From: Glutinoglossum americanum
Taxonomy: Eukaryota; Ascomycota; Geoglossomycetes; Geoglossales; Geoglossaceae
Direction: 5' to 3'
DNA: 64,000 nt
Assembly (NCBI GenBank): GCA_020080175.1
Contig: JAGHQL010000038.1
Span: 62,001 to 126,000 of the forward strand
The notes under the pieces are model-generated. The model worked only from the letters and a program-made list of their open reading frames with translations, was not told the DNA's origin and searched no databases. The translations under genes and the position numbers were made by a program. Below are positions 8,648 to 64,000 of this stretch, piece after piece (position 1 is the stretch's first letter; each line of letters opens with the position of its first letter).

Positions 8648-11600
8648 ATGGCCTCCTCGTACGATAAAACCTATCGAGTCCGGGGAATACCAGGTGCGTT
8701 TACCGAGGACGATACAAGGAAACTTCTCAGTTCAGCTTTCCTGGTTTCAAACTCGAACGTTGAGGACCCTAAGCCGAGAGTTCATTCTCTCGGCCCCGAT
8801 CCGTATTCCTTTGGGCAGGACGCATTCCAGGTAGCCACGGTTACCTTCAGGAAAATCCTGCCAATTCTCCAAGAATCCCAAGACGAATGGACCCTGCCCA
8901 TATCTGGATGGAGAAGCCCCAATGGAGGACCTGAGGTTTCGTCGCTCACTATTGATAGCCATTTCCGTGGTTTCACACCACTCAATTCAGTGGAAGATCA
9001 CTCGATAGAGTTGGTATTCACCTCTTATCATAAGCAAGATAACCATTGCTAATGAAGCTTAGTTGTATAGCAATTACAGGTCTAAGCAGCCATCCATTCG
9101 GCTCTTGGAAACAAAGGGGGGGCCAGTATATGTGGCTTAGAGATAGTCTACCTCAGGATCTTAAAGGAGCTCGTGTGCTCCTGTATGGCTATGATACTGG
9201 TCTAGTGCGGAGCGAGTCATTCCAAAATATCGATGATATTGCCGTCACATTTAGCCGGAGCATAAGGAGCATCAGGCGAACCTATAAGGTCTGCGACAGT
9301 GGAGAAGTTCTTCCCATTCGTGAGACTAACTGGTGTAGGTTGACGATGACCTCACGCCACGACCCATAATATTTATTGCGCACAGTCTTGGAGGGCTTAT
9401 CTTGAAAAAGGTATTGAGTCAATCTCTCTCTTAATCAGGAGGCCTTACTAGGCAATAGCTAACTTCTCTGAAGGCTATACTACAGATGAAAGGTGGAGTC
9501 AAAGCTGATAGGGATAACTTCAATTCAATCTATGGCGCATTACTATTTGGCGTGCCAAACCAAGGAATCAGAATCGAACACTGGCTACCCATAGTCAATG
9601 GGCAACCAAACGAGGACCTTATTCGGAACTTGGGATTTGGTTCAAAGTATTTGCGCGATCTTGGGGACGAATTCCATTTAGCATTCTCCTTTCCGGACTC
9701 TGAAATTATATCCATTTACGAAACTGAGCGAACAAGGGTCGCAAAAGTGAGGATCCCGTAATTTATGCCTTGTTTGGATTATTTGACTTACCCGAATAAC
9801 ATCTAGGAAGTAGAACCTGGAAAGTGGGCGTTAACTGGCGATTATGAGATTCTAGTGCCGGTTAATTCGGCGACAGACAGCTGCCCAGCCGAACCGGTCC
9901 ATCGCGTCCTGGCGGTCAAACAAAACCACTCAAACTTGGTCAAATTCCCGAGCCGATGGGATGAGAACTACAAGCTGATTGTATCTCATCTGGGAGATTT
10001 TAGCGTAGCTGCTGTGAAGACGATTCAAGCGAGATTTTTTGACGAACAAGAGATAGAACAACTTGGACTGTTTGAACTTTGGCCGGCTAGTCCCGCTGGC
10101 ATCATTTCCAAAATTAAGACGAGAGTGGAGTAAGTAGCTGAAAACCTTCTTTTCAGAGACTTTTGCATCATTTTAACCCTTATTGCTTGTTTCGAATTCA
10201 TAGTATTGTAGCCATCCATGGTCTCGGTGGTGGTCCGTTTAAGACTTGGACAGAAGGGTACCGGATGTGGCTCCGCGACTTTTTACCCTCTACTCTACCC
10301 GAGGCACGGATTATGACCTACGGATATGGCTCTGCGATCGCCTTTTGCGACTTGGCGTCGGGCATCTCGGACACTGCTCTGGATTTGTTGGAGAGGCTTA
10401 GATCAAAGAAGAAGAAGGAAGAGAAAGAGGTAGGCTAGAACAGCACCCCTTGGACGAGATGGCAGAACTTTAGGCTCATGGAGGACTTGTGTTACGGTGC
10501 TAATGCGGAATTTCCACAGAAACCGATCATATTCGTCTGTCATAGCTTAGGTGGCATTATCCTCAAAAAGGTGAACAGGTCTCGGCGTCTTTTATCTCCT
10601 TCGGTGATCCTAGTTTCCCTTTCCTTGGCTTGCTGCCGATGGTATGGCCTTCGGTCAAATAGCTCCCTGGATTTCTCTGCTCCTAGGGTGTAGTCTTCTA
10701 CCCTAGAGCGTCTCACACGTCCCTATACAGGTCACCACGAGCCACATTATGATCCCAGAAGCTATATAGTGATATTTAACGCTCTTTATTTAACTATCTT
10801 TGATATAGGCTCTCGTCACCGCCAGCGAGCGACCACGGTATGAGATGATTCTCAGAGCTACCACTGGCGTTGTTTTCATGGGCGCACCTCACCATGGCGT
10901 GGATGCCGAGTTTTGGGCTAATGTGCTAGACAAACTAGCTAATATGTCTCTTACCGGATCAGCTCAGATGGGCCTATTGAATGAACTGCCGCGGAAATCA
11001 GCTTTGCTGAGTGAGATTTGCTCACAGTTTGTCGAGAAAACAGCGAGGCTACAAATATTCTCATTTTATGAGCGGCTGAAGACCCCAGGGCTGGAAGATC
11101 TGGTTAGTACGCGATAGTGCGATTCATATGGCTTGGTTGTCTTAATGGTTCTTGACGTCTAATGAATAACTAGGTGGTTGATCAACAATCTTCAATTCTC
11201 CATCTCCCGAACGAGACCCCACTACCAATAGAATCAGACCATGCTGGTCTGTGCAAGTTTTTGACAGCTAATAGCCAAAAGTATCTGATCGTACAGGAAA
11301 GCCTGGTGGAGCTAGTAGAAGAATTAGTAGGAAAAGAGGAGGAAAGTGCGTCATCATACAATCCTTAGTGTATAGGCCGTTGTAACTTGGGCCCTACTTA
11401 CTAAACCGAGCATACTTTAGACTCACCTGATCTGTCAGACCTCTACACTCGGCACTCGGAATTCCTTCGCGAGTTGCGTGATTTCGATCATGTCTCGATT
11501 CTAGAGCGAATCCCACGAAATAGAGGCACAACTTGCCAATGGATCCTGGGATATCCAGCATTCACGTCATGGGAAGGACCAGATTCTCCGTGTCTGCTTT

Positions 11601-14600
11601 GGATCTACGGCCTGGCGGGTTCTGGAAAGTCAGTGCTCGCTGGCTACATCATCAGACGTCTGCAGGAAATAAACTCTACAGGCAGCCAAGGGCAGGGGGA
11701 GAGAACAGAGCAACAATCACTCTCCTACTTTTTTTGCGACGACAAAGATTCTCAGAGAAATACTGCTACTGCCTTATTACGCTCAATCCTTTCTCAAATC
11801 CTACCACAAAATGCCAAACTGTTTCGACATGTCGATGCCCGCTTCCTTGAGAATTCTGCCGACTTTATCTTCAATTCCGAGGCAATCTTGGATTGCCTTT
11901 ATCGAATTTTCGGGAAAAGCAGAGGGATTGTGTTCTGGATAGTGATTGACGCTCTGGACGAGCTACAAGAAATAGATCGGGCAGAAGTCCTCGATGGGTT
12001 AAGGAGCATAATCGCTGCTGATCTCGTCGGCCGTGTGAAAGTCATTCTTACCGATCGCCAAGGCCCAAGTGCAGAATATGAGTCGTCGCTCGCTCTAGTG
12101 ATTCAGACTCTCAACTTGGATATTGGCCCAGTGTGGCGGGACGTTGAAATTTCCATTCGTTCGGATGTCCAAGCGTTTTGTGTCGAGCACCGATTCCCTC
12201 AGGGCCTCCGGGGGGCTATCCAATCCGAGTTGATCTCGAGGTCCCAGGGTGTATTCCTTTTAGCTTCTCTGAACTGGGCTAATTTCTCCGATAACGTGAC
12301 ATATTGGAGCCAGGAGGTGGTTAATCGGAGGCTATTGGACCTACGGAAGCTCTCAGCTACCCTTGAGTCTTTGTATTGTAGCCTCCTCCGGAAAATACCC
12401 CAAGATTTTCGACCCCTACTCCGAAGTGCTTTCTCCTGGATCTTGGCCGCGCGGGAATCACTTACTATGAAGGATTTGCAGTACGCCATCTTTATACATC
12501 CATGTTGTGTATCCTACCAGGAAGTATACTGTCTTGGTTTAGATTTCGCTGCTGTGCTACGACGATTCTGCAGCCGTTTTATAAGGGTTGGGGAAGATGG
12601 CTATATTGAATTTTGTCACCAATCTGTGAAGGAATTACTAACGCGAGATATTTCACTAGAGGGAAACCGCGAAATTCTGTGCCAGTACCGTACTTCGCAA
12701 TCAGAACGCGAGTATAAAGTCAGTATTGCCTGCTTGACTTTGCTCCGGTGGAAGGAATTCTCATGCCCCGGCGTGGAGGACAAGATTGCGCCAAAAAAAA
12801 CGTTGCTCTTATGGCCTGACCGGGCCTTTGTTGAAAACAAATTACGAGACTTCCCGCTCTTAAGATATTCTGTCAGAAACTGGTACCGCCATTGCGAAAG
12901 CGTGCGGAATGACCGTCGAGTTGTTAGCCTAATTTCCGAGTATATTCTCTCGCCAAATGGCAACTATTTCCGTCTTCTTGGCGGCCCTTGGATGGTGGAA
13001 ACCAGAGTAAGACGATGGGGGGTTACTCCAGAGCTATTTGAATATATACCTCCCCTGAATGCACTTATTCAGTATGGAGATTTTGCAATTGTGGCGGAAA
13101 CTCTGGTTAAGCTGGGTCACGATATCAACAGGCTGGATTTCGAAGGAATGACACCACTACACTGGGCGCTCATTAGGGGACGTCGAGAAACATTTGCTTT
13201 CCTCATGCGAAGGTCTGATCTTAATCCAAATGCTGGAAGAGAAGGCTGCGACAAGGCGATCCACTCATGTATCGACCAGACGTTCAAACACTTACATCTT
13301 TTTAAAACGCTGTTGGAAGACAAGAGGGTTGATCCCAATTCTGCAGGCCGTGTTGATGCCACTTCTGTAAGGTGCAAAGGAAAACGGGCCCTACACATGG
13401 TTGTGGAGCACATTTGGGCATTTGAGGCCATGCTAGATCCTTTGCTTGGCCGGGAAGACATTGTTTTGAACATAAAGGACGAAAAAGGTGTAACGCCATT
13501 CATAAAGGTGCTGAGCACAGGGCACGGGAAGTCAGCAACACTTAAATTCCTCCAGCAGCCTGTCTCTTCACTAGATATTACAGCCAAGGACCGAAACGGC
13601 ACCAATGCCTTGTCTTTAGCTAGTATTAGAGGTTGGGGGGACGTTGTGCGGCAAATAGCTTTGCGCGACCAGTCCCAAATCTTTTCTGCGGATAATGATG
13701 GAATGAACTCTCTCACGAGGGCTGCCTACTTCGGTCAGAGAGTCATGCTCGAATCCCTTTTAAACGGCATTACCGCTGACCGTGTACATCGCCTTGCCGA
13801 CCTTGGTAGATATAATCTACTGAATCTATGTGCTCAGCAGGATTGGGAAGAGCTCACGAATAGCCTAACAGCTAGATTCGGTCTTGTTAGCCTTGAGCAA
13901 GACGACAAGGGGCGCACATTGCTACACTGGGCTGTGGAATGGGGCTGGAAGTACGGCCATGCAAATCACTCGCGAGAGCAACGCGCAAGAATAAACGTGC
14001 AAGACAAGGATGGAAAGACAGCACTCCATATCGCTGCTGAATGTCGAAATTTCAAAGCGGCCAGGTCCCTTCTGGGCCAGGGTGCCTGTTATACCTTGAA
14101 AGACAAGTTTGGCAAGAACCCCGTTCACGAAGCAGCAGAGTCTGGATCTCGAGCAATTCTAGAACTGTTCCTCAGTGGCCTAGATAGGGAGTTCGGGAAA
14201 GATAATGAGGGCCGTGGTCTCCTACACTTCGTGGCAATGTGGGAGTGTGAAGCTGTTGTGCAGAAATACATTGCTTCCAGACATCCGATAATTGACCTAA
14301 GGGACAAAACGAGACGCACTCCGCTTCACTACGCGGCAATTTTCGGCAATATCGATGCCGCTACCGTCCTTCTCAGACATGGGGCTAGCGTGGGCCCTAG
14401 AGATTTCTTGGGCTGTACGGCGCTGCATCATGCTTTCCAGCAAGGTCACCTAGATATGATCAAACTCCTGCTTAAGCATGGTGCAAACATCCGAGAACGA
14501 GACGGCTTCAGCAGAACCTGTCTTCAGATCAGCATCAGTAGTGGAAGACTTCCCATCGTCGACTTTGTGTTTGAAAAAGGGGCCAACGTCCGGAATCGAG

Positions 14601-15082
14601 ACAAGTGGGGCAAGACTGCTCTGCATCGAGCAGCAGTCTCGGCGAATCCGCGCATAATCCACGAGCTGCTTGAATATGGTGCTGATATCAATTCAAGGGA
14701 CTCATCTGGCTATACTCCGCTACACGTTGCGGTCATGGCGGACAACCGTGTTGCCGTGCAGGCGTTGCTCACTTATAAAATAATCAATCCGTCACTGGAG
14801 GATAACCTTGGTTGCACAAGTCTCGATTGGGCTCTAGCCCGAAGGGAAATGGGGATAGCATCCGATTTGAGGGCTTCCGGAGCGACCAGCACTCCGGACT
14901 ACAAGAAAGCTCTGCGTTTATACGCCAGACCTGTGCCCAAGAAGGAGGAATGGCACGACTGGCCCCTCTACCTAATGAGAAAATCCCAGTCGAATGGCCC
15001 TAGGCCTCAGAGTGCAGGCCCCCTAACCCCCAACCCAACTTCTCTTTACTCCCTGTCGCCCCCCGAAATAACCCGCCCCTGA
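8648..15082 (+). CDS. STAND receptor: N-terminal domain, two tandem serine-hydrolase domains, NACHT, ankyrin repeats
   Basis: Hand-built ten-exon model: 8648-9009, 9063-9288, 9339-9410, 9474-9746, 9807-10129, 10204-10429, 10466-10570, 10809-11102, 11174-11345, 11421-15082. Exons total 5715 nt, or 1904 residues. Order: an N-terminal domain (1-120); hydrolase 1 (about 121-418) with ITGLSS, AHSLGG (Ser212), FGVPNQG and a C-terminal His352; hydrolase 2 (about 419-690) with HGLGG, CHSLGG (Ser521), MGAPHHG and His650; NACHT with P-loop GLAGSGKS (about 748-755) and Walker B ending DALDEL; then about 12-14 ankyrin repeats (about 1257-1850) with TPLH/TALH cores. Esterase-type NACHT-ankyrin proteins are known fungal STAND receptors, where the N-terminal domain is the likely effector. 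The odd points are two hydrolases in one chain, a 36-nt intron at 10430-10465, and a weak donor (GTTGGT) at 9010. It could instead be two genes, but the 10129/10204 junction joins cleanly in phase 2. Confidence 0.75.
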
Positions 15083-19666: not shown

Positions 19667-21742
19667 TTATGTTTGTGGTAGCATTAGATTAACAATCCTT
19701 TTTTTCTCTTCGTTAAACTGGTAGAGTTGCTCGACAAGCTCGCCTTCTTTCATCAGAGCCTCCGTTGGCTTTCCATTGAAGTTAGGTCTCTTCGCAAGCG
19801 TGTCAATCACGTCCATCACGTCGCTATTATGCAGAATCCCGGCCATGCTGAGTAAGCCGACCGGCTTTTCGTATAGCATGGACTCTTGACGTGCATAGAA
19901 GAAGAGAGAGATGTTCAGGATGGCAACCGCGGCAAGTACACCTAAGACGATATACGCTACCAGCGATACCACAATCAGCCGCGTCTCTTCCGCCGAGTGG
20001 ATACCGGTACCATTTAGTGGGGAGCTTGCTAGCCTAAAAAGGGCTGTGCTAGCGAAGACTGCGAATGTGGTGGCAAACAGCGTGTGCGAGGCATTTATTA
20101 CGGCCTCCGGAACCAGAGGCGAGGCCGGATTCTCCTTACTGGCAATTTTGTAGACGTATCGGCCAAATTCTGTGTCACTAATACGATTCAGTGGATCGAA
20201 GCATCCGGGGTCTTGGATTCCTTTTTCGAAGAACCTCCACAAAGCGTCTGGCCTAAATTGTGACGCATTCGACGGATGTGGAGTAAAAACTCCCGAGAAA
20301 GGCGATAACATGGGGTCAGTTACCGTGACCAACTTGCCTGAAGTGATCCAATAGGAAGGTGTGCATGAGATCAAGCTAAAGTTTGTCATTCCAGCTGATG
20401 CGTTCGTATACTGCCCCGTTAAAATGCTGAAGCGACTCCAACCTACATCGGAAGCACACGATAGGGTCGGCCAGACCTTCAGGAAAGTAGTTGGGTGCTC
20501 AGAGTTAAGTTCGAGGTTGACAAAACTTGATATTTGGCAACCGCGATCGTCTGCGGTTATTTGGATTGACAAAGCTGGGATGCCGGTCTCGCCTGGTGTG
20601 AGAATAGTCTTGTGGTACTGTGACTCTGGAATGTATATGCAGCCGCTCTGTGCCGAATAGGCTGTAGTTTCTAGCGTTACGCTGCCATTCCCGACCTTTA
20701 TCGACGGATCGAATTTCGCAAAGGCATATCCGCTGTCCGTCCATGGCGGCTGGCGTGCATCCAAGAGGCGCATTGCGGCAGCAGAGTCCATTAATAGACG
20801 CAAGTCTGGGGAGTTAGGGTACGGTTCCAGAATATCTGAGTTGAAGGAAGTTTTAAAAGATAGTGGGAGTATGGTATTCGAGGCGAATGAAACGGTTGTG
20901 AAAAGAAAGGATGTGAGTGGTACGACAAGAAGAACCAGGACCACCGAGAAGAACATGCATGCGGCTAGTAAGAAGTGTTTGTTCCGTAAAGCTACAAACC
21001 AGCCGTAAAGGAGAGGCTCGGCCTTATAATCCACCATGAGAGTAGTCTGTAGAGACCGTCCGCCCCTTTTTTTCAAGTCAATGTACGGCTGTCTGTCAGC
21101 GAAAGCGGTAACTGCCGACTCCCACATCGTTCGGTATACTGTCATGATAAAGGCCGGGAGTGCAGTATACACAATGCCTTGCAGCCAGATAGCTTTTTCC
21201 AATGCCGGATTGCGAGCTAAAAATGCCGGGGGTTTGCTCAGCCGGGCAAACCCAGAGTTGCGTCTGGAAACAGTGTCAAGGGTAGCAACAACCCCGATAA
21301 GTGATACGACGATGAATAGCAGAAACGATAACCAGGGCCATCTTATCTTCCAGGACTTCCATTCTTCCCAAGGCTTCTGGGGCGGAGGTGCTCCCACCGG
21401 TCTCATCTCAATGTCCGCAACTGCTGGTTGATCTACCGCTGGTTGGCTCGTCGTTTGCCGACTTGCTACCGGCCGCTGAGGCGCGGCTGGTGGCGTGGTT
21501 GGTGGAGGCTCAGTGTGGGGAGGACTAGTTGGCGCTGTTGGCCGTCGTATTGGCGCCACCAGTGGTGTAGAACTTGCGAGTGACGACCTGGAGCTATTAG
21601 CATCGCTACTGGTAGGATTGATCGCCCGGTATTGCGGATATGTGTTGCCTGATGGTCGCAGCGGGGTACTGGCGGAAGGCGGCGCATCAGCTCTCCGGGT
21701 GGAACCATTTCGCCTCGGTTCATTAGGGCTATTGCTGGCCAT
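19667..21742 (-). CDS. DUF3433-like multi-pass membrane protein
   Basis: Single-exon frame of 691 residues from the ATG at 21742; an upstream in-frame ATG at 21928 would add 62 residues of unremarkable sequence, so the internal start is preferred. The first 130 residues are Ser/Pro/Thr-rich and disordered. Membrane segments follow at the W-rich KIRWPWLSFLL stretch and the next two hydrophobic blocks. A large loop of about 300 residues then carries several N-glycosylation sequons (NGS, NAS, NFS) and scattered cysteines, and a last helix precedes a cytosolic C-terminal tail. This layout matches fungal DUF3433 proteins, whose function is unknown. It is transcribed away from the secreted cysteine-rich gene at 22019, with a shared 276-bp upstream region, so the two may be co-regulated. 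Family assignment is by layout, not by search. Confidence 0.75.
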   Translation of the reverse strand: MASNSPNEPRRNGSTRRADAPPSASTPLRPSGNTYPQYRAINPTSSDANSSRSSLASSTPLVAPIRRPTAPTSPPHTEPPPTTPPAAPQRPVASRQTTSQPAVDQPAVADIEMRPVGAPPPQKPWEEWKSWKIRWPWLSFLLFIVVSLIGVVATLDTVSRRNSGFARLSKPPAFLARNPALEKAIWLQGIVYTALPAFIMTVYRTMWESAVTAFADRQPYIDLKKRGGRSLQTTLMVDYKAEPLLYGWFVALRNKHFLLAACMFFSVVLVLLVVPLTSFLFTTVSFASNTILPLSFKTSFNSDILEPYPNSPDLRLLMDSAAAMRLLDARQPPWTDSGYAFAKFDPSIKVGNGSVTLETTAYSAQSGCIYIPESQYHKTILTPGETGIPALSIQITADDRGCQISSFVNLELNSEHPTTFLKVWPTLSCASDVGWSRFSILTGQYTNASAGMTNFSLISCTPSYWITSGKLVTVTDPMLSPFSGVFTPHPSNASQFRPDALWRFFEKGIQDPGCFDPLNRISDTEFGRYVYKIASKENPASPLVPEAVINASHTLFATTFAVFASTALFRLASSPLNGTGIHSAEETRLIVVSLVAYIVLGVLAAVAILNISLFFYARQESMLYEKPVGLLSMAGILHNSDVMDVIDTLAKRPNFNGKPTEALMKEGELVEQLYQFNEEKKRIVNLMLPQT

Positions 21743-22018
21743 CTTTGTAAATGATGAGGAGTATGACAACTTGTGGAGACAGTGTCCCGGAGTAGCAGCA
21801 TGTCTAGGCAGGTCAGAGAAGAGCCTTGTTAAACTCTGTATTTTTATCTCGCCTTGGCAGGAAATGATTGACGCTAAGAGCGATGTTTTGTTTATAATTG
21901 GCTGTAAGGGCGCCACAGTCTTGGCCATTTGCGGGGACTACCTACAGTGTAGCCTTCTTCATCTCCAAACCCTCCCCAACCAGGCGACCGAGAACTGTTC
22001 TCACTCAAGACTCTAACG

Positions 22019-26783: not shown

Positions 26784-29700
26784 TTAGACCTGCCACTGCT
26801 GCTTCAGGCTCTCCTTCCAATTATCAAAATTAACAAGCTCGCCGTCGACCAATAACTTCCCAGCCTCGATTTCCTTTTCAGGCGGCGGAATGACAAGCCA
26901 GTCGTGTTTCGGGCTGCAGACTTTCAGCGGCATGTCATCCTCCTTCAAGCGCTTAAGGCACATCTCGCAAAAGCCGACGTCATAGCAGTATCGGCAGAGT
27001 GCCATGTTATGGAAGTTCGGAAACATGCGGTGGCAAGGCCCGTCACAGCCGCAATGTCCCCTAATATCGCCTTCGTTGGAGTCGTCATCTACAGGGTCTG
27101 ACGCTTCCTCTTCCTTGTTTTTATTCGTATCATTAGGCTCTTGCTGTTCCGGCTGGATCTTGTCCCAGCCTCCGAGGGCTTGAAACATGGCGACAGCGTT
27201 CTTGTCATCACCAGCGGCAATGAATACAAGCCCAAGTTTAAGATAACCATCGAAGTCGTTTCCTGGATCACCGTCTGATAATATCTGTATCGCTTCCTTG
27301 ACATGTGCTCGGAAGCAGGCCCGGGCATCTTCCGTTTGATCGTTGAGGCGGTACCACAAGCCCAAAATTATCGACGAGGTATTGGTGCTGATGAAAGTGG
27401 ACGGTGGCCCAGCGGTTTGGACCTTGAATTTTGCCAGCCTTTCTAGTTTGTCCACACATCTTCGAGCTAGCGAGGATCCTTTGTCGGCTCCGAGTGCCAT
27501 CTTGAACCAATGCCTGGCCAGGCAGGTCAATGCCTCATCCTTGACAAAGATCATCTCCGCTTCTACCTTCGATGCAGCAAATGTTTTCCTAATCTTCTTC
27601 CACATGCGAACAGCCCTCTCCTGGTCCTCACCATGTACGTAGTACACGCCAGCAAGGCAAAGCTCAAGCAAGCTTGCAGTGACCATCCTAAGCTCCTTTT
27701 TTGCCGCCGCGATCGCGGCATGATATGCATCGATCAGAAATGGTAGCTCATTAGTCTCTTGTGACGCGCGCGTGGCTGCCATTGTGAAAGGCGCGAGTTC
27801 GAATTGGTTTTTCCAGAACGACTCTGTCAAGCGCGAGTATCCTTGACCTGGGATCTCATCGTCCATACCCTTAAGCATGCTGATGATGTCTTGATACCGC
27901 TCTTTTTCGGCTAAGAGATTTAGACATACATTGATGCAGTCATTGCACCTGTTGTTATTGCTGAAAGCCTTCTGGCGGTACTCGAGAGCGGTTTCCTTAT
28001 CCCTTAACCTATAATAACACTCGCTCACGCTCTCCTGGATACTATGCAGGCTCGACTTTATGCTTGCGGACCGTTGGGGCTCGGCGACTAACATCTTCTG
28101 CAAGGTTTCTTCACTAACCTTGTGGAGCCGAACAGCTTCCTCGTACTCCGCTTTGGACATGTGCAACATAGCAATACCAGAGCGTGCGAGCCACATCGTA
28201 TCATCCATCTGCAAGGCTTTGTCAAAGTGTATTAGAGCATTGTCATACATTGCGTACTCGCGGAAGACGATTGCGAGCCTTCTGTGCCACAGAGCCGTTT
28301 TCTCAAACTGAGCCCATTCTGCAACATGAAGAATTTCTTGTGCCGTATCAGGCCCAGAGGCGGATGCGCTAAGTGGCGTCCCTTTTTGAAGGTTGATGAA
28401 GAAATACACCATCCGGCAGCAGATCTGCGCGATCCACCATTGATCCTGAAGCCACCTCTGAGCGACGTACCTAGCGAGTGGCAAGAACGTATCTGCGGGA
28501 GTATCCACAGTCGACTGTATCCACTCTCTATCCCCGGGAGGCAGGCCATCTCGAATATCTTTGTAATCCAGCCATCTCCTTACCATTTCGATATTATCCA
28601 CGCAAAAGAATATCGGAGGGATTTCACCAGCCCAAGCTTCCATAAAGGACTCTGACCTAAACATATTGGCTAGTAGGCCAGCGATTTCCCTACAATCGGC
28701 CCGGCTAGCCTTTGATGGGTCAACGGCGCGTAGATGGTGCTGCCAATTCTTGGCGGCATAAGGCAACAGGCTTGGGCTGCCTTTGATCTTCTCCATCAGC
28801 TTCTTATCGCAAAGGAGTTCAAGGCAAGTTTTCAGAACGCTGATCTTAGCCTCATTGAAGTTGACTCCGATCATGGGATGCCCATCGCCGACAGACACTT
28901 TCCCTTGAGCCTCGTCGCGAAAGAAGTCCCCAATCGAGGCGTGGCACAATGTCACTTCGGTAGTGGAAGGGTTAGAATGAAAATCTGTGGCGTTTTCGGT
29001 GTCGTCAAATCCCTCCTCCTCCATCTCCTGATCGCTATCCGAATCAACTGGAATTCCGCAAGGATTCTGAAGGTCTGCAGTTGACAGCCCATCCTCACGA
29101 ATAAGGCTAAAGAAGGAAGCATATTGCTTTCGGAGCATTCCTTCGAGGTAAAACATGCCGTCCCCATCATCAGACCTAAGCTTCAGTACTGTGTCAAGCT
29201 CGCCAAGTTTTAGCGGGGATTGGGCACACGTCGTCCAGGCTAACAGCTCATTCAAGTAGCTAGGATCCTCATCAGTCAGGCTTGACGAGAAGCCCTCAAG
29301 AACGTGTCGGAACATCTTTGAGATTCCTTTAGGCGCTTCATTCAGGCTCTTGCGGAGAGTTTCCGGTGATCTTTTTTTCATCAATTCTCTTAGCATTAAG
29401 TCTACCCAGAGGAACATCCCCTGGGCGCCTCTTGAAAGCTTATCCACAATCTCTGTCTGAAGTTCTGTTGGTACCCTCTTTAAGATCGTCGATTTGCGGA
29501 TGCTACTTCGTATATAGTGAACTATATCCTCCGAATTTTTCACTGACGTGACATGGATTGTCGGGACCTCCACCTCAAATGCTTCTGAAATAACATCAGT
29601 CAGCTGGGGACGCCCAACCATCATCAACTGTATGCGGGAGTGGCCGCTCTCTAGGGAACTCATCGTTAGTTTAACGATACTGAGTGAAGTTTAATGTAAA

Positions 29701-60924: not shown

Positions 60925-63554
60925 TCAAATGGTGATTGTCGTCCAGTTTCCAGTAGCCAAATCGTCGTTTGACAGCTCTAATATCTCCTGACCCGAAACG
61001 AAGTAGAGAGTTGCCGTCCCAGATGAGTCAACGGCTACAAGCCCAGCCGCTGGGTGTGCGCTACCCTCCACCAGGGTTTTCGGCGAAGAGAAGGCTGCAT
61101 GGTCGGAGGTTCCCACCGTTCCCCGCGTCTGCACTTTAAGCCACCCGTCTGCTGCAACATACGATAGGAGAACCGTGCCGTTGGTGGTAGCGTTAACGGT
61201 CGCGACCACGATGCTAGCCCCGTCTGGAACGTTGCCTGACGTTCCGGCGATCTCGTATATATCTGGGAGCCACGAGGATCCGGCATACATCCGCGCGTAA
61301 ACCGCCCCGTCGTACTCCTGAAAGAATACTTCCTCTACCTCGCCGCCAGTGGAGTCGTTTGTCCATCAGCAAACGCCGATACCTGATCCAACCTGGGCGC
61401 GACCCAACCGTGCTCCTTGAATCCATGATCGGTCCCGGTAATCGCCAATGCCAAATTCGTGGATTACCCCGCTTGGGTTTTGGTAGTAGATCCAGGCCGA
61501 GGTGCCATTACTCCATGTGAGGGAAGCAATCTGTGAGAGATCGTGGGCTTTTATTTTGTGCTCGTTGATGGATGAGGGTTTCCAGGTGTCGTTTTTTGGT
61601 ATATAGTCGATACCAGAAAGGGTGCCGTCGGCCGAAAGGAAGTAAATAGATGGGCCACCCATCCAGTCTAGCATCGTTAACGGGGTGTTTATCTTGGGGT
61701 TCACGCCTTCCACACATTCTACGCTGTTTCGCCATATCGGTTCCGATTTGGTGCGAATACAAAGCTTCCCACCCCCGCCATTATATACGACTTTCGTTTC
61801 TGGTCCACCAGGCCAGAGGGTAAAATATTGGTCCAGCACGATATGGGCAGCACCGAGTCCGGAATCGACTACAGGGAATACATTAGCGGGTGGGGCAGTC
61901 AACACGTGTGGGGTTGTCTTCGGTGCATGCGGCCTGCGGTAAAATATCCCCACACAGACACTAAGCGCAATAATCATGATGATGGAAACGAACAACGATA
62001 CGAGTCCTAATGGGGTTATGGGGTGAAGCTGTCCCTCTTGCCTTTGGGGCTTTCGCCCTTGTTCGGTGGTTGTTTGACCCCTAGGCGATGCGAAGTCCGA
62101 CCTCGTCACCGACGGCAACCGCTCAGGCTCGGGTTCTAGATGTAGCCGGTCTGACTGCAACGCCAAACCGTTGGTGGTAGGAATCTCAACCACTTTTTCA
62201 AATCGTTTTTCAATGTCGCGGAAAATTTGGTAGGCTGGCATAATGTATGCAAGGTTAGATTCTCCCGCAACTATATGACCATAGATGTCACCAGTTTCAG
62301 AGTCAATAACCCAAGATCCGCTATCTCCGGCCACTATGGATTACCGCGGTAAGTGTGATGCAGCATAACGGAACTGAATGGCTTGAACTTACTGATATCC
62401 CTCTCGAGGCGAACAACCCACACCTTCTGAAAGCCCTTTTGACAGCCTATGTTGAGGTAGAAGACTGTCCCAGAAATGTGGCCCTTGACCACACCAGTAT
62501 TACCCGTAGCCACCCAAACATTTCTATCTGGAGGCGTGTCCCGATCACTTCGCTTTGGCAAAAGTTTCTTCTCATTCAAGACCATTTCGTTTCCAGCGCT
62601 GAAATTGATATTTTCGATTTTGAAGAGTAACCAGTCCAGCGCTTCATCCACCCAGTGGGACTGCTTCAGCAATGTCCCTATCATCGCAGAGTTGGCATGG
62701 CGCTTGGTGTTTGACCTGTACTCTGGCCCTAGTTTCGCAGCTCGATTAGAGTATATCACAGTGAAGCGGGTGTCCCATTCCTTACAGCAGTGATCTCCTT
62801 CAGAAGTATCTGAGTCTCCAAGATCTTCGTCATCGAACTCGCTGTCGACTTCCAGTATCAGCTGATCACCATTACCCCCTGGTGGATCGTCGGGTCTAAA
62901 ATCATCGGATATGATGTGTTGCACAGTTAAGCCATAATATTCCCCGCCAATTGAAAGAACGCCACCCATTGTTGCGCTTCGTGGATCTGACGATAAGCCG
63001 GAGGTGGGAGCCCGCGTCGAAATCGGGGCACCGCAAGGGTTTGCGAACTCATCAAGAAGAAGAACTGTACGTGCATCTTTATCGGCCGGCTCTAACGTCC
63101 CTAGTGGTTCATGCCGGGTCTCTATCATCTCCCCTTGTCTCGCAACGAGCACAGGAGCGTGCGGAATGCTGCCTATTCTTATGCAAACATCCAGTTGTAC
63201 CTTCTCCTTAATCAGTGCGATGGCTTTTTTGCGAATATTCGGGCTGAGACAATAAACGATGACAGTCGGTCGCGCTTTTTCCTTTGTCCGCCCAATCATA
63301 TAAACCCCAAAGCCCAGGTTGTTCTTTTCCTTCTCTCCCTCACGCAGGTGTTCCTCTCGCTGTTCGAACACAGCTTTGATGTCCTTGCAAACACGTTCCG
63401 CAATCTCGCCTGCTGGTCCAATGGCTGCCCAACAGCACTTGCCTCTTCCCAGGTCCCGATAACGCTCACCAGCAGACCTCCCCGGCTCTGGCCACTGCGG
63501 GCGCTCGCGTGTTCGCGTGACTGTGATCAACTTAGAGCGAATCCATGATTCCAT
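60925..63554 (-). CDS. Trypsin-like protease domain, membrane helix and fungal lectin-type propeller (one in-frame UGA)
   Basis: Exon 1 is 63554-62393, exon 2 is 62333-60925; the 59-nt intron (GTAAGT to CCATAG, phase 1) creates the codon of M388. Residues 1-190 form a mixed domain (PTVIVYCLSPNIRKKAIALI). Residues about 195-420 look like a chymotrypsin-fold protease: LTVQH (His213), LDWLL (Asp307) and AGDSGSW (Ser392), the three catalytic positions in the usual order. A single membrane helix (about 494-519, LVSLFVSIIMIIALSVCVGIF) is followed by a stalk and a beta-propeller resembling the fungal fucose-specific lectin family, with repeats such as SLTWSNGTSAWIYYQ and EEVFFQEYDGAVYAR. A TGA at 61366-61368 falls between two strands of the propeller; the frame stays open for 146 more codons with lectin-like sequence. 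TATATA-like elements lie about 130 bases upstream of the start. A 48-nt intron (GTATCG to GGTAG) could also remove the stop. Confidence 0.65.
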
Positions 63555-64000
63555 GTCAATCCTGTAATGGAGCGAACATCCGGACCTCGAACGATCCTGG
63601 TAGTCGGGGGTTGTCTGCACACTATGAGGTGTCGAGATTTGGGGAATACCAGACACACTAACTGATCGTTAGAGCACGTATATATGGGATGTATATAAGT
63701 AATTGGAAACTAAGAAAACATAGTACAAATCTGAGTAGTTTTTAGAACTTTGCGTTTATATCATCTATCGGTACCGGGGCACTAATGCGGGGCCTAGCAA
63801 GCTTGAAAAGCCGTTTCTACGTTTGGGCCATCCGCTAGTACGCAAGGCTGACTGGCACCAGAGGCGCAGTCCTGTTGCTAAGCCTGGCGGGAAGGACTGT
63901 CATACATGCTCACCCACATGCTCCCTATGCAGACTTGGCTCGCCTCTATCCGGAAGTACTAGGTGTACGCGATCTCTGGTATCATGTCCGGAGGATAGCG
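63555..64000. other. Promoter-side flank, nothing recognised
   Basis: Contains TATATA-like elements at about 63679-63697 upstream of the protease-lectin gene; the rest to the right edge shows no gene. Confidence 0.4.

What the first reader, a model, noticed from the sequence alone, without database searches (positions are those of the whole stretch)
60925..63554. Protease-membrane-lectin architecture in one chain
Seen: His-Asp-Ser positions of a trypsin-like fold, then one membrane helix, then lectin-like propeller repeats. A lectin outside and a protease inside (or the reverse) would be a one-protein glycan sensor coupled to proteolysis. I do not know a described fungal system with this order. 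Inference only; topology is not determined by charge alone.
Basis: partly seen in the sequence, partly recalled or inferred. Interest (0 to 1): 0.75.

Follow-up and report, generated by a model that had tools for sequence, protein, structure and literature searches.

The report
Fungal protease fused to membrane lectin
In this fungus one gene joins a probable trypsin-like protease, likely inside the cell, to a membrane-anchored sugar-binding propeller likely outside; the two halves are separate genes elsewhere in the same genome, and this copy carries a premature stop, so it looks like a real but possibly damaged fusion receptor.

Summary
The order protease, one membrane helix, lectin is there, on the minus strand (ATG 63554, last stop 60925). 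A predicted 59-nt intron (62392-62334) lies just before GDSG. GDSG, helix and half the lectin then share one open exon, with no start before the helix, so one fused gene is the simple reading.

The lectin half is a Fungal_lectin (PF07938) propeller. Three full-length paralogues in this genome have the same helix and propeller without protease. The protease half belongs to a family that no Pfam model names; four further loci in this genome carry it without lectin, one beside HeLo-like and kinase-like regions. So this is a fusion of modules, not a conserved pair.

The chymotrypsin fold is probable, not proven: H, D and S are in order, but profile hits are weak and structure models were poor. Protease inside and lectin outside follows from the paralogues and the missing signal peptide; the window's own charges point weakly the other way.

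An in-frame TGA (61366-61368) cuts the propeller about in half. Codons behind it look as constrained as in intact paralogues, so the stop is recent, an error, or spliced round. Glycan-triggered proteolysis is inference. No fungal collection was on hand to test other species.

The parts
62393..63554 (-). Exon 1: N-terminal domain (about residues 1-165) and the His/Asp part of the protease-like domain
   Evidence: homologous along its length to the C300 protein, which has all this in one 665-codon frame
62916..62918 (-). His213 codon (LTVQH)
   Evidence: His invariant in the 4-member alignment A1
62634..62636 (-). Asp307 codon (ALDW)
   Evidence: matched by LDY (C300), IDW (C54), MDW (C61) by eye; not an invariant column of A1, C24 ambiguous
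62334..62392 (-). Predicted intron, 59 nt, GTAAGT...ATAG, phase 1, directly before GDSG
   Evidence: predicted introns of 54 and 48 nt, same phase, at or near the same place in C54 and C24; C300 has none there
60925..62333 (-). Exon 2: GDSG half of the protease, linker, membrane helix, lectin; ends at stop 60925-60927; interrupted by one TGA
62320..62322 (-). Ser392 codon of AGDSGSW
   Evidence: Cys in the C300 relative (GDCG), Ser in C24, C54, C61
61945..62001 (-). Core of the single membrane helix (residues 499-517)
   Evidence: Mean hydropathy 2.79, the only segment over 1.6 in the protein; helix with block pLDDT 84-89 in an otherwise poor model; aligned with the helices of C137, C210, C274
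60958..61701 (-). Fungal_lectin (PF07938) match, profile positions 47-284 of 299
   Evidence: 35.3 bits, cut-off 25.3, 1 TGA inside
61366..61368 (-). In-frame TGA at codon 710 of 856
   Evidence: sense codon at this place in 3 of 3 full-length paralogues

Best explanation
The gene is a fusion of two modules that this genome also keeps apart. Module 1 is a PA-clan (trypsin-like) serine-protease-like domain with its own N-terminal domain. Module 2 is a type II membrane protein with an AAL-type fucose-lectin propeller outside the cell. In the fusion the protease takes the place of the cytosolic tail of the lectin. Most likely action: the propeller binds fucosylated or similar glycans at the cell surface, binding or clustering changes the tethered protease inside, and the protease cuts a cytosolic substrate, much as Ssy5 or the protease-bearing sensors of fungal cell death do. 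Shown: order, single exon from GDSG into the lectin, homology of each half, presence of H, D, S. Favoured but indirect: splice, fold, topology. Inferred only: activity, ligand, substrate, coupling. The copy in this assembly is interrupted in the propeller, so it may now be inactive as a lectin.
For: One open exon of 322 codons runs from GDSG through the helix into the lectin; the only Met between residues 431 and 520 is 507, inside the helix. Protease half: E 1e-37 to C300; His and GD[SC]G[SA]W in order in 4 of 4 aligned members, and in C61 by eye; a predicted phase-1 intron just before GDSG in 3 of 5 loci. Fold: the 4-member profile finds 6 distinct PDB sequences at E up to 10, of which 5 are proteases of the chymotrypsin fold (fold recalled), weak at E 0.54-3.8; 4 of these 5 are variants of one viral protease. 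hhalign to the DegP/Q/S alignment scores 21.3 against at most 16.9 in 20 shuffles and at most 17.7 in 3 unrelated proteins. Lectin half: PF07938 over cut-off; a profile of the 3 paralogues, window left out, hits solved fucose-specific lectins at E 5e-5 and two chains named only 'predicted protein' at 8e-7. Topology: one hydrophobic segment only, N-side charge above C-side in 3 of 3 paralogues, sequon NGT663 kept in 4 of 4.
Against: No piece of the 5 family loci matches a protease model in Pfam; NCBIfam names none for the window pieces, C300 and C24; PDB by single sequence gives nothing for the window pieces and no protease for C300. In the best profile hit the GDSG stretch adds 0.0 bits. AlphaFold models were poor: mean pLDDT 33.9 and 44.3, so no fold search was made. 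The hhalign probability is only 1.5%, E 0.033, and covers only 74 columns around GDSG. The window protein's own helix flanks are 0 (N side) and +3 (C side), against N-inside by charge alone; one sequon (NFS317) lies in the protease half, and only 2 of the 6 lectin sequons lie before the stop. The stop at codon 710. The fusion is seen once; no relative was found in viral or prokaryote collections, where a fungal gene is hardly expected.
Confidence: 0.45

Rival explanations
1. A decaying fusion gene. The fusion formed and was once translated, but this strain's copy is broken: the protein ends in mid-propeller and is a membrane-anchored protease with a useless lectin stump.
For: In-frame TGA at codon 710 of 856; 3 of 3 full-length lectin paralogues have a sense codon there. 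Fusion found at one locus only.
Against: No frameshift and no second stop in the 146 codons behind it; these keep 35-43% identity and dN/dS 0.41-0.49 to the three paralogues, like the intact pairs among themselves (34-74%, 0.32-0.54). GDSG, His, Asp intact.
Confidence: 0.35
2. The stop is not real in the mature message: a base-call error in the assembly, or a 48-nt GT...TAG stretch spanning it is spliced out in frame.
For: Constraint behind the stop; the stretch from GTATCG to GAGGTAG is 48 nt by my count, a multiple of 3, and contains a CTGAT branch-like word (read from the output).
Against: That stretch encodes residues conserved in 3 of 3 paralogues (SGIGV..W), so splicing it would remove a propeller strand; no reads are available here.
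Confidence: 0.25
3. Two neighbouring genes, or an assembly join, misread as one chain.
For: The halves were separate in every other locus examined in this genome. The intron is predicted, not seen.
Against: GDSG and the lectin are in the same exon and frame with no Met between them but the one in the helix; the place is 32 kb from the nearer contig end (C250 is 157,782 bases) and GC is even across the parts (0.51, 0.51, 0.54).
Confidence: 0.08
4. The protease-like half is a non-catalytic binding or scaffold domain that kept the GDSG look.
For: Far from the named proteases; Asp not clearly alignable in C24.
Against: His and GD[SC]G are kept in 4 of 4 aligned members and, by eye, in C61; Cys for Ser in C300 is a swap known from active proteases (recalled).
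Confidence: 0.2

Closest known systems
Fungal_lectin / AAL-type fucose lectin (PF07938; solved relatives include FleA)
   Same: Lectin half is a member by sequence
   Different: Solved members are soluble lectins (recalled); here it is membrane-anchored and carries a protease. The 3 full-length paralogues in this genome have the anchor but no protease
MOA-type fungal chimerolectins (lectin plus papain-like protease; PMC8244254, start of abstract in the search listing only)
   Same: Lectin and protease in one fungal chain
   Different: Other lectin fold and no membrane helix (recalled), papain-like cysteine protease; here a GDSG protease and a PF07938 propeller
Ssy5 of the yeast SPS sensor (Peptidase_S64; PMC12958826, start of abstract in the search listing only)
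   Same: Works like: an endoprotease freed when a plasma-membrane receptor binds its ligand; chymotrypsin-like (recalled)
   Different: There the receptor is a separate transporter-like protein; the S64 model does not ring in this genome, though it rang in none of the controls either
Protease-bearing sensors of fungal cell death (S8 or CHAT domains with NLR, repeat or kinase-like parts; PMC12881547, passages read)
   Same: Protease as a swappable module on different sensor parts; the C54 relative lies on one chain with weak HeLo and kinase matches
   Different: S8 and CHAT are other folds (recalled); the term search found 'trypsin' 0 times in that text and 'lectin' only in a reference title

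Membership tests
Fungal_lectin PF07938 | Profile match over the curated cut-off | tested here: met
   35.3 bits against 25.3 for the locus, read by the tool across 1 TGA; the piece before the stop alone reaches 20.3, below cut-off, and the piece after it has no match
Fungal_lectin PF07938 | Fucose binding | not testable with these tools
   Binding residues were not mapped
PA-clan (chymotrypsin-fold) serine peptidases | His, Asp, Ser in this order, with GDSG | tested here: met
   in the family, Asp is not alignable in C24
PA-clan (chymotrypsin-fold) serine peptidases | Double beta-barrel fold | tested here: inconclusive
   Weak profile hits only; models too poor
Pfam Trypsin (PF00089) and Trypsin_2 (PF13365) | Match to the model | tested here: not met
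   Neither model rings at the window locus: 0 of 3 and 0 of 6 matches in the genome lie there, so it is not filed in these two families
Peptidase_S64 (Ssy5) | Match to PF08192 | tested here: inconclusive
   No match in the genome, but none in any of the 14 controls
MOA-type chimerolectin | Beta-trefoil lectin with papain-like protease | tested here: not met
   Lectin is PF07938 and the protease half carries GDSG; no other Pfam family over cut-off in the pieces; the definition of the family is recalled
Fungal cell-death protease sensors | S8 or CHAT protease domain | tested here: not met
   No such match in the pieces up to E 10
Fungal cell-death protease sensors | Gasdermin gene next door | not tested
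   Neighbouring genes were not searched for gasdermins; the stretch beyond the window was fetched but not analysed

The most novel reading that the evidence does not exclude
The protease half is an unrecognised PA-clan family that fungi use as a swappable signalling module: on a HeLo-like/kinase-like chain (C54), on a chain with a hydrophobic C-terminal segment (C300, with Cys as nucleophile) and on a type II glycan receptor (this gene). The window gene would then be a one-chain receptor that turns sugar binding outside into proteolysis inside.
Probability: 0.3. Interest if true: 0.8.

Novelty: new variant of a known kind. Interest (0 to 1): 0.48.

Why it matters
Fungi must tell friend, foe and self apart at the surface, and few surface receptors of theirs are known (recalled). 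A lectin tied through the membrane to a protease would be a short path from recognition to response. Even if this copy is dead, it points to a protease family with no name in Pfam, found at five loci of one genome and joined to different partners, one of them a HeLo-like domain of the kind used in fungal cell death.

Tried and rejected
Single proteins of the protease family against Pfam (pieces of all five loci), NCBIfam (window pieces, C300, C24, where the C54 piece sent was the kinase-like stretch before the protease, so C54 and C61 are untested there) and PDB (window pieces and C300): no protease match. Relatives in viral and prokaryote collections: 31, 60 and 2 pattern matches, 0 confirmed (for the protease profile; 38 for exon 2 in viral contigs). 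No fungal collection was on hand, so conservation of the fusion in other species is untested. Structure models of exon 1 and of exon 2 up to the stop: too poor to search with. A shared N-terminal domain: clear for C300 (score 151, shuffle maximum 53); marginal for C54 (1 of 500 shuffles reaches it) and C24 (0 of 500), whose slices also hold part of the core; not supported for C61 (18 of 500). C61: its GDSG part exceeds 500 shuffles (61 against 52), its His part does not (57 against 69). Splicing the stop out: thought unlikely, since conserved residues would go. PMC9864599, the one paper that held all four terms: passages read, separate lectins and proteases, no fusion named.

Full report
What is there. 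The window lies in a 25.8-Mb genome of 317 contigs (C250, bases 62001-126000), a fungus by inference from its genes. The feature is a gene on the minus strand. Its ATG is at 63554 and the last codon ends at 60928, followed by a stop at 60925-60927. Two long ORFs make it up, 62334-63656 and 61366-62334, in different frames. A 59-nt intron with GTAAGT at its start and ATAG at its end joins them in phase 1, directly before GDSG. The intron is predicted, not observed, but two relatives have a predicted intron of the same phase at or near the same place: 54 nt in C54 and 48 nt in C24. C300 has none there, and for C61 the join was not worked out.

The spliced chain has 856 codons with one TGA at codon 710. 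His213 sits in LTVQH, Asp307 in ALDW, Ser392 in AGDSGSW, and a single hydrophobic segment has its core at 499-517. The Fungal_lectin model PF07938 matches 60958-61701 at 35.3 bits, over the cut-off of 25.3, when the tool reads across the stop. The piece before the stop alone reaches 20.3 bits and the piece after it has no match.

One gene or two. GDSG, linker, helix and the first half of the lectin are one open frame of 322 codons. Between residues 431 and 520 the only Met is 507, within the helix. So the lectin part could not start on its own before its membrane helix, and the protease part has no stop before it. A fusion is the simple reading.

The halves elsewhere in the genome. Lectin half: C137, C210 and C274 carry the same helix and propeller, at 42-52% identity. 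In C137 and C210 the tail before the helix is long and repetitive or proline-rich; in C274 it is short and polar. None of the three shows GD[SC]G[SAT]W in the 6.0, 8.7 and 8.0 kb fetched; C137 lies 1.2 kb from its contig end, so a lost exon there is not excluded. Two further short matches, C44 (53 residues) and C46 (37 residues), were not followed. Protease half: C300 (665 codons, GDCG), C24 (GDSGSW), C54 (GDSGAW) and C61 (GDSGTW). None of the 4 lies at a lectin match. Their partners differ. C54 has, in the same 1175-codon frame as its His part, weak matches to HeLo (18.1 bits, cut-off 23.2), DUF7580 (22.5, cut-off 27) and a kinase model (21.6, cut-off 31.7), all below cut-off. C300 goes on behind the protease: residues 476-529 match ORFs at C213 and C32, and there is a hydrophobic segment at 611-629.

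Is it a chymotrypsin fold? No piece of the five loci matches a protease model in Pfam, and Trypsin and Trypsin_2 do not ring at the window. A profile of four members (A1; C61 left out) finds six distinct PDB sequences up to E 10: four variants of one viral protein (0.54 to 1.2; one of them named serine protease nsp4, the other three only non-structural protein), one unrelated (3.4) and mite allergen Der p 3 (3.8). In the best ones both the His stretch (10.5 bits) and the GDSG stretch (0.0 bits) align in order. None is significant; that two of the three different proteins hit are proteases of this fold (fold recalled) is suggestive only. Aligned with slices of E. coli DegP, DegQ and DegS by hhalign, the part around GDSG matches over 74 columns, score 21.3; 20 column shuffles reach at most 16.9 and three unrelated proteins at most 17.7, but the program's own probability is 1.5%. 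The models from single sequences have mean pLDDT 33.9 (exon 1) and 44.3 (exon 2 up to the stop) and show nothing firmly but the helix. I hold the fold probable.

Topology. The chain has no hydrophobic start and one helix only. An N-terminal half of 498 residues is then most likely cytosolic. In C137, C210 and C274 the net charge of the 15 residues before the helix is +6, +4, +4 and after it +2, +3, 0, which is N-inside. In the window protein itself it is 0 and +3, which by charge alone points the other way. The sequon NGT at 663 is kept in all four lectins. Of the 7 sequons of the window chain 6 lie in the lectin half, but only 2 of those before the stop.

The stop. Relative to the three paralogues, the part before the stop is 60, 59 and 55% identical and the part behind it 43, 43 and 35%; among the paralogues the fall is similar (84 to 74, 53 to 36, 49 to 34). 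dN/dS behind the stop is 0.41, 0.49 and 0.48 against the three, and 0.32 to 0.54 among them (ratios from the values; dS is above 1 in all but one pair of genes, so they are rough). Nothing says that the part behind the stop has drifted freely for long. Either the stop is recent, or it is an assembly error, or it is avoided by splicing. Intact paralogues exist.

Mechanism. The most likely action is that of a surface receptor with an intracellular protease: the propeller binds a glycan, the protease cuts a target. The closest working models are Ssy5, freed by a plasma-membrane sensor (PMC12958826, abstract start only), and the protease sensors of fungal gasdermins (PMC12881547, passages). The step from binding to cutting is inference. 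In the passages that I saw of PMC12881547, PMC9815663, PMC10481521, PMC12355970 and PMC9864599 no trypsin-like fungal sensor with a lectin is named. Ten paper searches showed none in their listed titles and abstract starts either, but several lists were capped (for example 15 of 774), the library lacks most subscription journals, and I read passages, not whole papers.

Verdict. The architecture is real. It is a fusion of two families in one genome, with an interrupted lectin. The more general and more novel lead is the protease family itself.

Noticed in passing
window 11405-15079 (+): NLR-like gene: NACHT / NPHP3_N with ankyrin repeats in one 1225-codon frame.
   Followed up: no
window 26787-29690 (-): 968-codon frame with weak TPR matches, all below cut-off, perhaps a second repeat-bearing receptor.
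   Followed up: no
L033:1194-5297 (G000:C54): Protease-family relative on one chain with HeLo-like and kinase-like regions, all matches below cut-off.
   Followed up: partly
L031:3588-5582 (G000:C300): Closest protease relative has GDCG, a Cys in place of the Ser.
   Followed up: partly
L031:3588-5582, L023, L025 (G000:C300, C213, C32): The stretch behind the C300 protease (residues 476-529) matches two other ORFs that look rich in hydrophobic stretches by eye: perhaps a second mobile membrane domain.
   Followed up: no
window 19670-21937 (-): 756-codon frame with DUF3433.
   Followed up: no
L047 and L048 (G000:C287, C116): Two similar proteins at Trypsin-model matches, with a GNSGSPVF motif and long C-terminal parts.
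   Followed up: no
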